Part shown: positions 5,186 to 46,869 of the stretch, piece by piece
How the letters are laid out: the number at the start of each line of letters is the position of its first letter
Numbering within the stretch: position 1 is the first letter of the stretch
Origin: Ignavibacteria bacterium
GTDB taxonomy: Bacteria > Bacteroidota > Ignavibacteria > Kapaibacteriales > UBA4661
Direction: 5' to 3'
Assembly (NCBI GenBank): GCA_013298775.1
Contig: JAAFIV010000005.1
Location: forward strand, 124,001-188,000
Length of the DNA stretch: 64,000 bases
The notes under the pieces: generated by a model
The model's input: only the letters and a program-made list of their open reading frames with translations
What the model was told of the DNA's origin: nothing
Database searches by the model: none
Translations under genes and position numbers: made by a program

Positions 5186-6571
5186 ATGAAACTTGAATTA
5201 CAAATGCTGGGAGGCGCAGAAGAAATCGGTGCAAATTCCTGCTATCTAAACATTGGCGGACATGGGGTTGTGATAGATGCTGGCTTGCATCCACGCCGCC
5301 GCGATAAGTTTGCTTTACCCGATTACGACCTTTTAAGCGAGAAGCGCGTTGATACCTTCTTGCTTACGCATGCGCACACCGACCACGTTGGCGGCTTACC
5401 GTATTTTATGAAACGCCAGCCTCATGCTCGCATGATTACAACACGCCCTACGCGAGAACTTATCGAAGTGATGCTGCGCAATACTATTAAACTTCTTACG
5501 CTGGATTCTACCGAAGGTTTGCCTGAAAACCCGCTTGAATTCTACGATTACAAGCTCTTGAATAAATTCGGAACGCTCTTTGAAGGCTTTTTGTACGAGG
5601 AGGAAATCGTTCTCAGCGAAGACCAATACTACAATGGCAATCACGCTCAACACGGCGTAACAATGAGCTTCCACGATGCCGCGCATATTATCGGCTCGGC
5701 GGCGGCACGTTTCAGCGTGAATGGCGCGACAATCCTTCATAGTGGCGATGTGCAGTTTACCAAACAATCACTCTTGCCTGGAGCATCCCTGCCCCAAGAA
5801 CCGCTTGACTGCTTGATTTTGGAATGCACCAACGGCGCGGATGAAAATCCTGTTCCCTATGCAGAAGAAAAACAACGCCTTGCAGATTTTATCAATCGCA
5901 TAACCAATCAAAACGGCTCGGTACTGCTTCCTACCTTCGCACTCGGCAAAACCCAAGAAGTGCTGAAAGTCGTTTCCAATTTGATGAATTCTGGAAAAAT
6001 CCCGCGTTTGCCGATTTATACTGGCGGCATGAGTAAACGTATCGGAAAGATTTACGACCGCTATGCACACAGCGTTCCTCGCGTCGAACCTGGCTTTGCG
6101 TTGTCGGGAATTCCGCAGGTAAGCGTGATATATGAGAAAATGCTCACCGAAAAATTCTTCCACGAGCCTGGCATTGTCATCATTTCTAGTGGAATGTTGA
6201 ATGTTGGGAGTCCTTCGTATTCACTCGCGCAACGGTGGATGGAAATGGAGCATTTTGGCATTGGCATCATGGGCTACCAAGACCCGTCCACACCTGGTTA
6301 TCACTTGCTTCAATCAACAAAAGGCGAAGAATTTATCATGGCGGAGAAAGTAACGACGAGGGTTTGCGACGTAGAACGTTTCCGCTTCAGCGCACACGCT
6401 TCGCGGGCAAATTTGCTGGAATACGTGGATGCCGTCAAGCCCAAGCACCTCTTCCTCGTGCATGGCGACGCGACAGCGGCAGAGTCCGTTGCCGCAGCGG
6501 TAAAGTCGAGTTTGCCCGAAACGAAAGTCTGCATCCCGCGTTTGGGTGTTTCATATGAGATTGATTTGTAG
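5186..6571 (+). CDS. Metallo-beta-lactamase/beta-CASP RNase (CPSF/Ysh1-like)
   Basis: The product is 461 residues from the ATG at 5186. An in-frame upstream extension would translate the repeat at 5044-5126 and is rejected. The N-terminal metallo-beta-lactamase fold carries H62-A-H64-T-D66-H67, the di-zinc signature, followed by H-D-A-A-H-I-I-G-S-A and H-S-G-D-V. The beta-CASP insertion shows L-P-T-F-A-L-G-K-T-Q-E-V and I-S-S-G-M-L. The C-terminal lobe has R-F-S-A-H-A-S-R and F-L-V-H-G-D, the extra beta-CASP histidines. These proteins are endo- or exonucleases acting on RNA in the cytosol. It resembles the archaeal/bacterial CPSF-like group more than RNase J, lacking the C-terminal RNase J extension. 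It converges on the interrupted S41 gene downstream. Confidence 0.88.
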   Translation: MKLELQMLGGAEEIGANSCYLNIGGHGVVIDAGLHPRRRDKFALPDYDLLSEKRVDTFLLTHAHTDHVGGLPYFMKRQPHARMITTRPTRELIEVMLRNTIKLLTLDSTEGLPENPLEFYDYKLLNKFGTLFEGFLYEEEIVLSEDQYYNGNHAQHGVTMSFHDAAHIIGSAAARFSVNGATILHSGDVQFTKQSLLPGASLPQEPLDCLILECTNGADENPVPYAEEKQRLADFINRITNQNGSVLLPTFALGKTQEVLKVVSNLMNSGKIPRLPIYTGGMSKRIGKIYDRYAHSVPRVEPGFALSGIPQVSVIYEKMLTEKFFHEPGIVIISSGMLNVGSPSYSLAQRWMEMEHFGIGIMGYQDPSTPGYHLLQSTKGEEFIMAEKVTTRVCDVERFRFSAHASRANLLEYVDAVKPKHLFLVHGDATAAESVAAAVKSSLPETKVCIPRLGVSYEIDL

Positions 6572-6587
6572 GCTTTTTTTTGCCTAC
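6568..6587. terminator. Short inverted repeat with T-run in the loop
   Basis: GTAGGC (6568-6573) and GCCTAC (6582-6587) flank eight thymines. The repeat overlaps the nuclease stop codon and lies between two convergent genes. The T-run is in the loop rather than after the stem, so it is an unusual and weak terminator candidate. Confidence 0.3.
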
Positions 6588-6600
6588 GCCGCGTGTACGT

Positions 6601-8970
6601 TTATTTGATAAGATTCAACGCTGCTTCCACAACTTCGTCACGCCCCTCGCGTACACCCTTCAGCGTCCGCACTGCTGGAAGGTTCGGTTTTATGCCGACA
6701 AGATGATGCTGCGAGCCATCATGCTTCGTAACTTTCATGCCCGTCCATGTGATTACGCCGCTTCCGACAAGCGGAAACATGATGATATTCCCATTCGCAC
6801 CAGCACTTGCGCCGCCGATAATTTCACCAAGACGGTATTCCTCGACAATGTTCAAAATAGATTCTCCCTGACTATACGTCCCATTCCCAGCCAAAAACAC
6901 AACCTTTCCTTTGATGCGCGGCTTTTTCGGAACAAGCTGCCAGCGACCATTGGTGTCGGAGCCTTGCACACGCTCTTGGTCAGGATACACGATGTGCGGA
7001 ATGTTCCAGCGCATGGACTGGAGAGGAGCATCGGTCAGGTATTCGAGGATTTTCCCGTTATCATTCGGATAGCCGCGAAGGTCGAAAATGACTCCTTTCG
7101 CCAACGACAAATCCGCTATTTTCTCCTCAATATCTGCAACGGAAACCTGCGCCATATCAACATACCAGACCGCGTCTGCTGGCGAAGAACCCGATAATTG
7201 TTGCATTCTGGGATGTTCAAACGGAAAAGAGCGTACACGCCCACACCGCACCGTTGTTGAGATAACTTGCCCATTTCGTTCAAGAGTAATTGCAGCTTCC
7301 GTATTTTTGAATAATAGGAGATTTTCCGCCGCTTTGTGCTGCTTCCACTGTACAGTACCTGAAACAAGCGCGATTTCTTCCTGCATTCGCCGTCCTGTAT
7401 CAATGCTATCAATACTCAACAAAATATCGCCGCGCTGCAAGACCGAATCCTTCGACGCAAGGATTATCGGCTTTCCCTCAATGTTTCCAACAACGCATGG
7501 AAGCATCTGATAGCGATAGTTCGGAACATACTGGGCGTGTCCGTCTTACAACGCCTCCAGCATTCGGCGCATAACAACGGAAAACTCCTTTGTGGAGGAG
7601 CTTCGCAGCGTCGCTTGGAGTGTTGTTGTCAACACGGAATCCCAATTTACCCGCACAACATCGAAGTACGGATAAAAATGTTTGAGCGCATTCCACGCCA
7701 TAATACTTTCTGCAAGGCGCACAGATTCTTGCTCCAAAGCATCTCTGTCTAATTCTATCGGATTGACAGACTTGTACAATAATTGCTCAAAAGCAGCGCG
7801 ACTTTCTGGCGTAGAACCAAGCGTTGAAGCACTATCCGAATACAATGCAACGGGAAAAGCGCATTGTAAGCCACCTCCGATTTTTTTAACAATCAGCTCA
7901 TCAGTATTTGGTTTTGCGGCAAAAAGCTCTGTAAATGTAGTTTGCTTCTCAGGGGAAATGTATTCAATGAGCGCACAATATTCTCCCTCGTAAGGTGTTT
8001 CTGTACTTGGTGTCACAACATAACCAGCACCGCTGCCATCCCATTCCCTATACCCTTTACGCCCTGTACTCATAACGCTAAACTTCTCAAAACCTCCGTT
8101 AGATATTGGTATAGGCTTCCAGCTTGTTTCACCTATTGCCCTTGTAAAAAGGCGTATATCATCCACCCAAACTTTCCCCTTACCGTGTGCTAAACAACCA
8201 AATGTTATAGTAACTGCATTCGTATCTACCGTACCAACAATAGTGTAGGTGTTCCATGCGGAGGAGGATCGCACTGTTGCATTAGAAAAAAAGCCTCGGA
8301 GACCATCATTCCTATCGACCCGCAGCCACATAGACCCATAATCCTCTTCATTACTCACATCTGCCTTCACGGCAGCAGTAAATTTTATTTCTTTACCCCA
8401 AAGCTGCCGAACGGGATAAACATTTGCCGCGTTTGAAGCGGACTCCTCAATGTAATTTCTGACCCCGCCATAACCAGCATTTCTTTCATTGCTTTTCGTA
8501 CCGCGATTAAGGCGGACACTCTGGTACGGGGTATTATCACCAAAACTATACATTCCTACACCTACGCCCTGATGCTGCCAAGCTACTATTTTCAAGCCTT
8601 TCAGGGCATTTGGCTTCGTTATTGGAATCGGTGTTTCGCCCACCCGCAGAATTTGTAGCGTTGGCGCAATCGGCAAAAAAAGCTCTTTTAATGTTTGTTG
8701 TAGTTCCTCGCTTGTTCGCACTCCCTTTACCTTTTGCGCTCCATACATTGCAAACTTTCCCCAATTCATCCGTGCTGCTTCATCGCTGGGATGGAAATAG
8801 CGCACATAGCCGTAGAGCTTTGTGAACGCACGGAGATTAACCACCTGCTGCTCCAATGCGCTTGGAGGTTGCCTGGTTGCTATTGACGTTGGTACTTTTT
8901 TGCGTTGCGCCAAGGCTTCCGATTCAGCAAATAGACCGAAAGAAATCAAGAGAATGGCTAGGTATTGCAT
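6601..8970 (-). pseudogene. Secreted S41-family peptidase interrupted by a single in-frame TAA
   Basis: One continuous frame of 790 codons runs from the ATG at 8970 (signal peptide M-Q-Y-L-A-I-L-L-I-S-F-G-L-F, ending A-L-A-Q) to the stop at 6601, except for TAA at 7548-7546 (codon 475). The codons on both sides are in the same phase and rejoin a typical family sequence (M-L-E-A-L, stop, D-G-H-A-Q-Y-V-P), where a Lys is expected. One substitution, AAA to TAA, would explain it. The upstream part has an S41 N-terminal region with Y-G-Y-V-R-Y-F-H-P and a carbohydrate-binding-like insert. The downstream part has a PDZ-like region and the peptidase core with D-L-R-G-Y-P-N-D-N-G and N-G-T-Y-S-Q-G-E-S. 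Decay is otherwise absent, so the mutation is recent, a sequencing error, or a read-through site. Confidence 0.8.
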
Positions 8971-9022
8971 AAATGCTGGAAAGGTTAAAAGTTTTCGGAA
9001 AATACACCATTTTGAAGATTTA

Positions 9023-9352
9023 TTACCGCTCAAAAAACAGCACTCCAACCCGCATAACATGGTCTTTCACCGCATTATCAGTCAGCGCGGCAAAGTGCAA
9101 AACATCCACCATATACGGCAACGAACTATCATCGCAATCAGCTTTGATGCGGCGAATGATTGCATCGGAAACGTCAGGATTCATCACAGCGAGGTCTATG
9201 TCGCTGCCGTGCTTAAACGTCCCTTTTGCGCGGCTTCCGAAGATGCAAACCTGCTGCACATCGGGGTAACGGCGCAGTATGTCGTGCAGGGTTGTCATAT
9301 CGCGGTCGGTAAGACCGAAGCGGTTGCGAGTCAGTATTTGTGGGGCATTCAT
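9023..9352 (-). CDS. mntA: MntA-like nucleotidyltransferase antitoxin
   Basis: The product is 109 residues of the minimal nucleotidyltransferase (MNT) fold. The catalytic motif G-S-x10-D-x-D is complete: G39-S40, then D51-I52-D53. A third acidic residue probably lies in P-Y-M-V-D-V-L. In characterised type VII toxin-antitoxin systems this protein inactivates its HEPN partner by adding AMP to a tyrosine. Its start overlaps the stop of the HEPN gene by four bases (9349-9352), the arrangement expected for a translationally coupled pair. It ends 52 bases before the interrupted S41 gene. Assignment as antitoxin is inferred from the pair; stand-alone MNT proteins of other function exist. Confidence 0.85.
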   Translation of the reverse strand: MNAPQILTRNRFGLTDRDMTTLHDILRRYPDVQQVCIFGSRAKGTFKHGSDIDLAVMNPDVSDAIIRRIKADCDDSSLPYMVDVLHFAALTDNAVKDHVMRVGVLFFER

Positions 9353-9783
9353 GGATTTTCTTTTGAAGGATTTTCTTCCGAAGACTGCATTTCTGCGGAC
9401 AAAGACATATACACCGAGCGCAAAGCGGGAAAGACGCTACTTCGGAAGATAGGTTCAGCACGTTCAAATTTTTCCCCGCTATAATCGTGAGAAAGCAAAT
9501 TGCGCAGTTCCAAACCGTCTATCAATTCTTGGGCGCAAGAAATATAGCCGCTTTGCTCGGCAAGACGAAACACATCTTTGGGCGAAGGTTTGAAGACAAA
9601 ACCGCGCTCTTCCAAAAAATCTTTGAGGGTTTTCCATGCAAGTTCAAGCGTAAACTCAAAACGCTGCACAAGCCCGTTGCGCTCAAGCTCATTCAAATGC
9701 GGCATATTTACGGCTTTTTCCAACCGTGCAAATGCTTGTTCAAAATTGCGAAAGCGTTGCTGCCAGCGAATATCGTGGTTCAT
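9349..9783 (-). CDS. hepT: HepT-like HEPN toxin (HI0074 family)
   Basis: The product is a 144-residue all-helical HEPN-domain protein, formerly annotated as nucleotidyltransferase substrate-binding protein. It contains F-E-F-T-L-E-L-A-W-K-T-L-K-D and the RNase signature R-x4-H-x-Y as R94-N-L-L-S-H99-D-Y101. Arg and His are the expected RNA-cleaving residues, and Tyr is the residue modified by AMP in studied HepT proteins. The last ~12 residues are Ser/Glu rich. Gene order is toxin first, antitoxin second, with a four-base overlap. It starts 109 bases after rplQ, just past that operon's terminator, so it either has its own promoter near 9800 or relies on read-through. Confidence 0.87.
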   Translation of the reverse strand: MNHDIRWQQRFRNFEQAFARLEKAVNMPHLNELERNGLVQRFEFTLELAWKTLKDFLEERGFVFKPSPKDVFRLAEQSGYISCAQELIDGLELRNLLSHDYSGEKFERAEPIFRSSVFPALRSVYMSLSAEMQSSEENPSKENP

Positions 9784-9831
9784 TTGTGCGAGATTTGTTT
9801 AGGTAAATTGGGCAGACTCCAATATACAAAA

Positions 9832-33842: not shown

Positions 33843-34229
33843 AGTAGTAGCACAGACATTCTTGTCTGTGAGTATTAGTGCGGGCTTCAGGCGACAAACA
33901 CAGACAAGAATGTTATCTGTAGTGGAGTAGAAGTCATAGAGTTCTTTGACAATGAGAGTTTTGATAGTCCATGGAAAATGGCTTTGCAGCTTGTCGCATT
34001 CGCCCCCTTGATAAAGGGGGAACGGGGGATTGCTGTTTTGCGCGGTCTCCACCACCCCAAGCTCACGCGAAGGCGACCAAATCCCCCGTTCCCCCTTTAT
34101 CAAGGGGGCGAAGGATTGATGCGACTTTCACGGCATTGTCGGCAAAAGACCGAACTACCAAAACTTTCGTTGTCAAAGACCATACTACCGTCTACTCCAG
34201 TGCAGGTAGCAAGAATGTCTGTGCCACTG
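33843..34229. repeat. Nested inverted-repeat structure, about 390 bp
   Basis: The outer arms carry the AGACATTCTTGTCTG-type element (33851-33870 and the complement at 34209-34229). Inside them, DNA around 33921-33970 is complementary to about 34148-34200 (GGAGTAGA, CTTTGACAA, GAGTTTTGATAGT and their complements). Innermost is the perfect 31-base repeat at 34001-34031 and 34080-34110. A second CAGACAAGAATG core lies at 33900-33913. Confidence 0.75.
34001..34110. repeat. Perfect 31-bp inverted repeat of the CCCCCTTGATAAAGGGGG type
   Basis: The arms at 34001-34031 and 34080-34110 are exact reverse complements, each containing CCCCCTTGATAAAGGGGG and CGGGGGATT, with a 48-base centre. Each arm can also fold on itself. 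The element resembles intergenic repeats seen widely in bacterial genomes. Confidence 0.85.
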
Positions 34230-46787: not shown

Positions 46788-46869
46788 TAGTGGCACAGAC
46801 ATTCTTGTCTGTGTTTTTTTACTTGAACCCAGCACCAACACTCACAGACAGGAATGTCTGTGCCACTAA
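46788..46869. repeat. CAGACA/TGTCTG palindromic element, copy after gmk
   Basis: AGTGGCACAGACATTC (46791-46806) with TTGTCTGTG, and the near-perfect complement at 46845-46869, form a stem of about 25 base pairs. A run of seven T follows the first half (46816-46822). The element starts within one base of the gmk stop and ends just before the next gene, so it may end the gmk transcript. Confidence 0.85.

What the first reader, a model, noticed from the sequence alone, without database searches (positions are those of the whole stretch)
7546..7548. Single in-frame TAA interrupts an otherwise intact S41 peptidase
Codons on both sides are in the same phase, and translation continues at once into D-G-H-A-Q-Y, where the family has Lys-Asp-Gly. 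Signal peptide, middle domain and catalytic core are otherwise clean. A single AAA-to-TAA change explains it. Possible readings are a very recent pseudogene, a sequencing or assembly error, or stop read-through.
Basis: seen in the sequence. Interest (0 to 1): 0.6.

Follow-up and report, generated by a model that had tools for sequence, protein, structure and literature searches.

The report
Peptidase gene cut by one stop
A gene for a secreted protein-cutting enzyme is interrupted by one stop codon that none of the compared relatives carry, which most likely means that this bacterium has just lost the enzyme (or that one base was misread); it is an ordinary event and shows no sign of special decoding.

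Summary
On the minus strand, one 789-codon frame (8970..6604) encodes a secreted, tricorn-like S41 peptidase and is broken only by TAA at codon 475 (7548..7546), just before the Asp-Gly-His motif. None of the homologues found in relatives or other phyla has a stop inside. The family has no fixed Lys at this site (Arg, His, Cys, Ser, Lys, Gln and others occur), so an AAA ancestor is not shown. The closest sister genome lacks the gene, so it cannot show the ancestral codon. The gene lies in a rearranged, variable slot beside rplQ and a MNT/HEPN-like pair. Programmed read-through is not supported: the stop is not conserved, TAA is the commonest stop in the window, release factors are present, none of the 37 tRNAs found reads UAA, and no RNA structure stands out. 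Restart at the next ATG would lose both the signal peptide and the presumed catalytic His. With no second lesion in 2.36 kb, the stop must be recent. Best reading: a very young nonsense pseudogene of an accessory peptidase. An error, or a variant present in only part of the sampled population, cannot be excluded without reads. Interest is low.

The parts
6601..8970 (-). Whole reading frame of a secreted tricorn-like S41 peptidase, 789 codons plus natural stop, interrupted once
   Evidence: translation; homologues align 17-788; PF03572 40.1 bits, cut-off 24
7546..7548 (-). In-frame TAA, codon 475
   Evidence: absent from all homologues
7549..8970 (-). Upstream part, 474 codons: signal-peptide-like N-terminus, helical N-terminal domain, beta-sandwich-like middle domain, C1-like helical stretch
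6601..7545 (-). Downstream part: Asp-Gly-His, PDZ-like region and S41 catalytic core, open frame of 314 codons plus natural stop
7537..7545 (-). Asp476-Gly477-His478, invariant motif with the presumed catalytic His, directly after the stop
   Evidence: invariant in A1; aligned to KDGHT of 4l8k
6862..6873 (-). Ser700 to Glu703 of the nucleophile loop (TYSQGE), both end residues kept
   Evidence: invariant columns S700 and E703
6601..7506 (-). Frame from the first possible restart codon (ATG, the 14th codon after the stop); lacks the signal peptide and Asp-Gly-His
9023..9783 (-). Upstream neighbours (context): MNT nucleotidyltransferase-like and HEPN-like gene pair next to rplQ
   Evidence: ORFs, named from sequence by eye; same place in G007, not next to rplQ in G005

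Best explanation
This is a recent nonsense mutation in an accessory, secreted S41 (tricorn/CPAF-like) peptidase gene. Translation stops after codon 474, before the presumed catalytic His and the whole catalytic domain, so the only expected product is a secreted, inactive N-terminal fragment and the enzyme is lost. The gene is a single copy of a patchily distributed family in a rearranged slot, and ten other S41 domains remain in the genome, so loss is plausibly tolerated. Shown: the stop, the intact frame around it, intact homologues, and no tRNA found for UAA. Inferred: that the base is real in the organism, that the product is inactive, and that loss is neutral.
For: One lesion only, in a frame that is open in every homologue found. 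Invariant residues D476 G477 H478, S700 and E703 are kept. The restart frame loses the signal peptide and His478. Lesion counting: about 3.9% of random substitutions in this frame would make a stop, so no second lesion limits the neutral changes since loss to about 75 (substitutions only) or 22 (if a tenth of mutations are indels), i.e. about 1-3% of sites. The family is dispensable in this genus: no match in three of eight genomes, including the closest sister at 96% completeness. The genome has ten other S41 domains, none with a stop inside. The slot 6571-9821 is not shared with the sister.
Against: No reads were available, so one wrong base gives the same picture. No conspecific genome is held, so polymorphism cannot be seen. 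Faster change in the C-terminal half of this copy (15 of 84 positions invariant in seven relatives lost, against 4 of 89 upstream) might suggest older relaxation, but relative-rate tests are mixed, and post-stop decay on that scale should have left further stops.
Confidence: 0.68

Rival explanations
1. The TAA is a single-base sequencing, consensus or assembly error, or a variant present only in part of the sampled population; the gene is intact in most cells.
For: One base in an otherwise clean frame with intact catalytic residues; the assembly is a draft (95 contigs); the scan of the window's ORFs for same-frame neighbours raised no other obvious interrupted gene, so the genome does not look to be in general decay.
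Against: No repeat or homopolymer at the site that would favour a miscall; good assembly statistics (99.2% complete, 0.25% contamination); nothing in the sequence itself points to an error.
Confidence: 0.25
2. The stop is read through (programmed, or by a suppressor tRNA), so that the full enzyme is made at a low level, as a dosage control.
For: The frame continues open for 314 codons with intact catalytic residues. Full-length product from nonsense-interrupted genes has been reported in Shigella diguanylate cyclases, mechanism unknown (PMC11327459).
Against: No homologue shares the stop, the criterion of the stop-codon mining study PMC1914089. TAA ends 28 of 41 long window ORFs. Three proteins with the RF-1 domain are encoded, one of them in this window. 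None of 37 tRNAs has a UUA anticodon. RNA around and after the stop folds no better than shuffles (z +0.65); no Rfam element. TAA is neither the Sec nor the Pyl codon.
Confidence: 0.03
3. The gene now works as two proteins: a secreted binding domain and a restarted catalytic half.
For: An ATG lies 14 codons after the stop. Restart at a Met near a premature stop is reported in Shigella (PMC11327459).
Against: The restarted half lacks Asp-Gly-His, which is invariant in A1 and lies where the S41/tricorn catalytic His is expected, and it lacks a signal peptide. No relative is split this way.
Confidence: 0.03

Closest known systems
Peptidase family S41 (Pfam PF03572), tricorn/CPAF-like branch (PDB 4ghn, 4l8k, CPAF 3dor, tricorn 1k32)
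   Same: Catalytic-core profile, Asp-Gly-His before a PDZ-like region, Ser and Glu on the nucleophile loop, fold of the core
   Different: Carries an extra N-terminal region with a beta-sandwich-like domain; here interrupted by a stop before the His
Young bacterial nonsense pseudogenes (single in-frame stop)
   Same: Lineage-specific stop, intact homologues elsewhere, otherwise clean frame
   Different: Nothing notable
Recoded genes (selenoproteins, pyrrolysine proteins, UAA/UAG reassignment)
   Same: Frame continues after a stop codon
   Different: Wrong codon for Sec or Pyl, stop not conserved, no UAA-reading tRNA found, UAA is the common terminator

Membership tests
Peptidase family S41 (PF03572) | Profile match over the catalytic core | tested here: met
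   40.1 bits, cut-off 24, residues 603-764
Peptidase family S41 (PF03572) | Catalytic Ser, with His and Glu of the tricorn/CPAF-like branch, at conserved positions | tested here: inconclusive
   H478, S700 and E703 are invariant in alignment A1; which acidic residue completes the site and the geometry were not measured
Peptidase family S41 (PF03572) | Proteolytic activity | not testable with these tools
   needs protein
Tricorn C1 domain (PF14684) | Profile match over the curated cut-off | tested here: inconclusive
   20.5 bits, cut-off 24; structure match of the whole model to tricorn 1k32, E 1e-11
Nonsense pseudogene | Interrupted relative to intact homologues | tested here: met
Nonsense pseudogene | Signs of decay after loss (further stops, frameshifts, lost catalytic residues); expected of old ones, not required of young ones | tested here: not met
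   none in 2.36 kb; fits only a very recent event
Nonsense pseudogene | Base confirmed in reads or in a second isolate | not testable with these tools
   no reads, no conspecific genome
Read-through or recoded gene | In-frame stop conserved in homologues | tested here: not met
   no homologue has it
Read-through or recoded gene | Decoding tRNA for the codon, or a stimulating RNA element | tested here: not met
   no UUA anticodon; z +0.65; no Rfam match

The most novel reading that the evidence does not exclude
UAA at codon 475 is read as a sense codon at a useful rate, acting as a lineage-specific dosage switch for a secreted peptidase.
Probability: 0.02. Interest if true: 0.6.

Novelty: new member of a known kind. 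Interest (0 to 1): 0.12.

Why it matters
It matters little beyond annotation: the gene should be recorded as one interrupted S41 peptidase gene, not as two genes or as a recoded protein. It is a clean snapshot of what looks like the first step of gene loss in an accessory peptidase family that the closest sister genome also lacks.

Tried and rejected
(1) Orthologue in the sister genome G005 to read the ancestral codon: the gene and its slot are absent. (2) Conspecific genomes in GTDB contigs: none returned, only distant homologues at 22-37% identity. (3) Suppressor tRNA: none found. (4) Recoding element by fold or Rfam: none. (5) Relaxed selection after the stop: more changes at otherwise invariant sites downstream, but relative-rate tests are mixed and partly blurred by similarity among tandem paralogues of G006. 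If all of the extra change had followed the stop, further stops would be expected, so it is read as divergence before the stop. (6) Close paralogue in the same genome as a back-up copy: none, only a short middle-domain hit. (7) Laying the whole genome out for a count of interrupted genes was not available. (8) The first alignment script read some loci on the wrong strand; it is replaced.

Full report
OBSERVATION. The minus-strand frame from ATG 8970 to the natural TAA at 6603..6601 has 789 codons. Codon 475 (7548..7546) is TAA and it is the only stop inside. The window is G000:C45:124001-188000 of a 5.19 Mb draft genome in 95 contigs (99.2% complete), and the whole-genome search shows the same single TAA. 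Homologues align across the stop without a break, the best at 53% identity over residues 17-788, so this is one gene and not two neighbours.

WHAT IT IS. Read through for searching only, the protein has a signal-peptide-like start, a helical N-terminal domain, a beta-sandwich-like middle, a C1-like helical stretch (PF14684 20.5 bits, under its cut-off of 24) and an S41 core (PF03572 40.1 bits, cut-off 24). The predicted model (mean pLDDT 79) matches solved S41 peptidases: 4ghn, photosystem II D1 processing protease, CPAF, CtpA/B and tricorn. In an alignment with ten distant homologues, Asp476-Gly477-His478, Ser700 and Glu703 are invariant. A weak sequence alignment with the solved putative peptidase 4l8k places its Lys-Asp-Gly-His-Thr at this spot. 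That this His is the catalytic one follows from general knowledge of tricorn and CPAF; it was not measured here. The stop would therefore remove the His and the entire core from the product.

RELATIVES. No homologue in relatives or in other phyla has a stop inside. The residue before Asp-Gly-His varies freely: R, C, R, H, R, K, S in the nearest seven copies and others further away. The nearest genome, G005 (about 93.5% DNA identity over the ribosomal-protein segment), has no copy. Its left block ends with the beta-CASP gene (window 6570) and its right block begins at window 9821, with dndC-like genes next to rplQ instead (gene names by eye). The genes that follow the beta-CASP gene in G005 lie on other contigs of the window's genome. 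In G007 the MNT/HEPN-like pair is next to rplQ, followed by dnd-like genes. The peptidase gene is therefore an accessory gene in a rearranged slot. Three of the eight genomes of the genus show no match, whereas G006 and G007 hold several copies.

HOW OLD IS THE STOP. In this frame about 3.9% of random substitutions create a stop. No second stop in 2,364 bases limits neutral substitutions since loss to about 75 at the 5% level, or about 22 mutations if one in ten is an indel. That is 1-3% of sites, less than the distance to the sister genome. The downstream half of this copy has changed at more of the positions that are invariant in seven near relatives (15 of 84, against 4 of 89 upstream). Relative-rate tests give p values from 0.0001 to 0.85 depending on the partner, so this is weak. 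Such divergence, if neutral and after the stop, should have brought more stops, so most of it predates the stop.

READ-THROUGH AND SPLIT-GENE READINGS. TAA ends 28 of 41 long ORFs in the window. Three RF-1-domain proteins are encoded. None of the 37 tRNA genes found has a UUA anticodon. The 111-nt stretch at the stop folds no better than shuffles and no Rfam element lies near. A published screen for read-through genes required the stop to be conserved in homologues in order to set aside pseudogenes and errors (PMC1914089); this one would fail. Full-length or restarted products from nonsense-interrupted genes are reported in Shigella (PMC11327459), so a trace of read-through is not excluded. 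A restart at the first ATG (7506) would give a protein without signal peptide and without Asp-Gly-His.

VERDICT. A single, real-looking and recent nonsense interruption of an accessory S41 peptidase gene (0.68). A base error or a partial-population variant (0.25) cannot be told apart without reads. Special decoding or a working split gene is unlikely (0.03 each). The finding is ordinary.

Noticed in passing
window 6571-9821: Rearrangement breakpoint or variable slot between the beta-CASP gene and rplQ: in the sister genome G005 the two flanks lie on different contigs, with dndC-like genes beside rplQ; in G007 a MNT/HEPN-like pair plus dnd-like genes sit there. It looks like a defence-gene hot spot next to the ribosomal operon.
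   Followed up: partly
window 33846-33913 and 46789-46867; more than 35 places in G000: Dispersed imperfect repeat of about 100 bases in both orientations, present in many copies here and also in the sister genome.
   Followed up: no
L006 (G009:C95) and L009: Family copies with Asp-Gly-Gln in place of Asp-Gly-His and an otherwise open frame: possibly catalytically altered S41 relatives.
   Followed up: no
G009:C89:36057-37445: The beta-CASP homologue in this genome shows one in-frame TGA in the search.
   Followed up: no
G006:C118:22582-27438: Two full-length copies of this peptidase family in tandem; their C-terminal halves are more alike than their N-terminal halves, as gene conversion would give.
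   Followed up: partly
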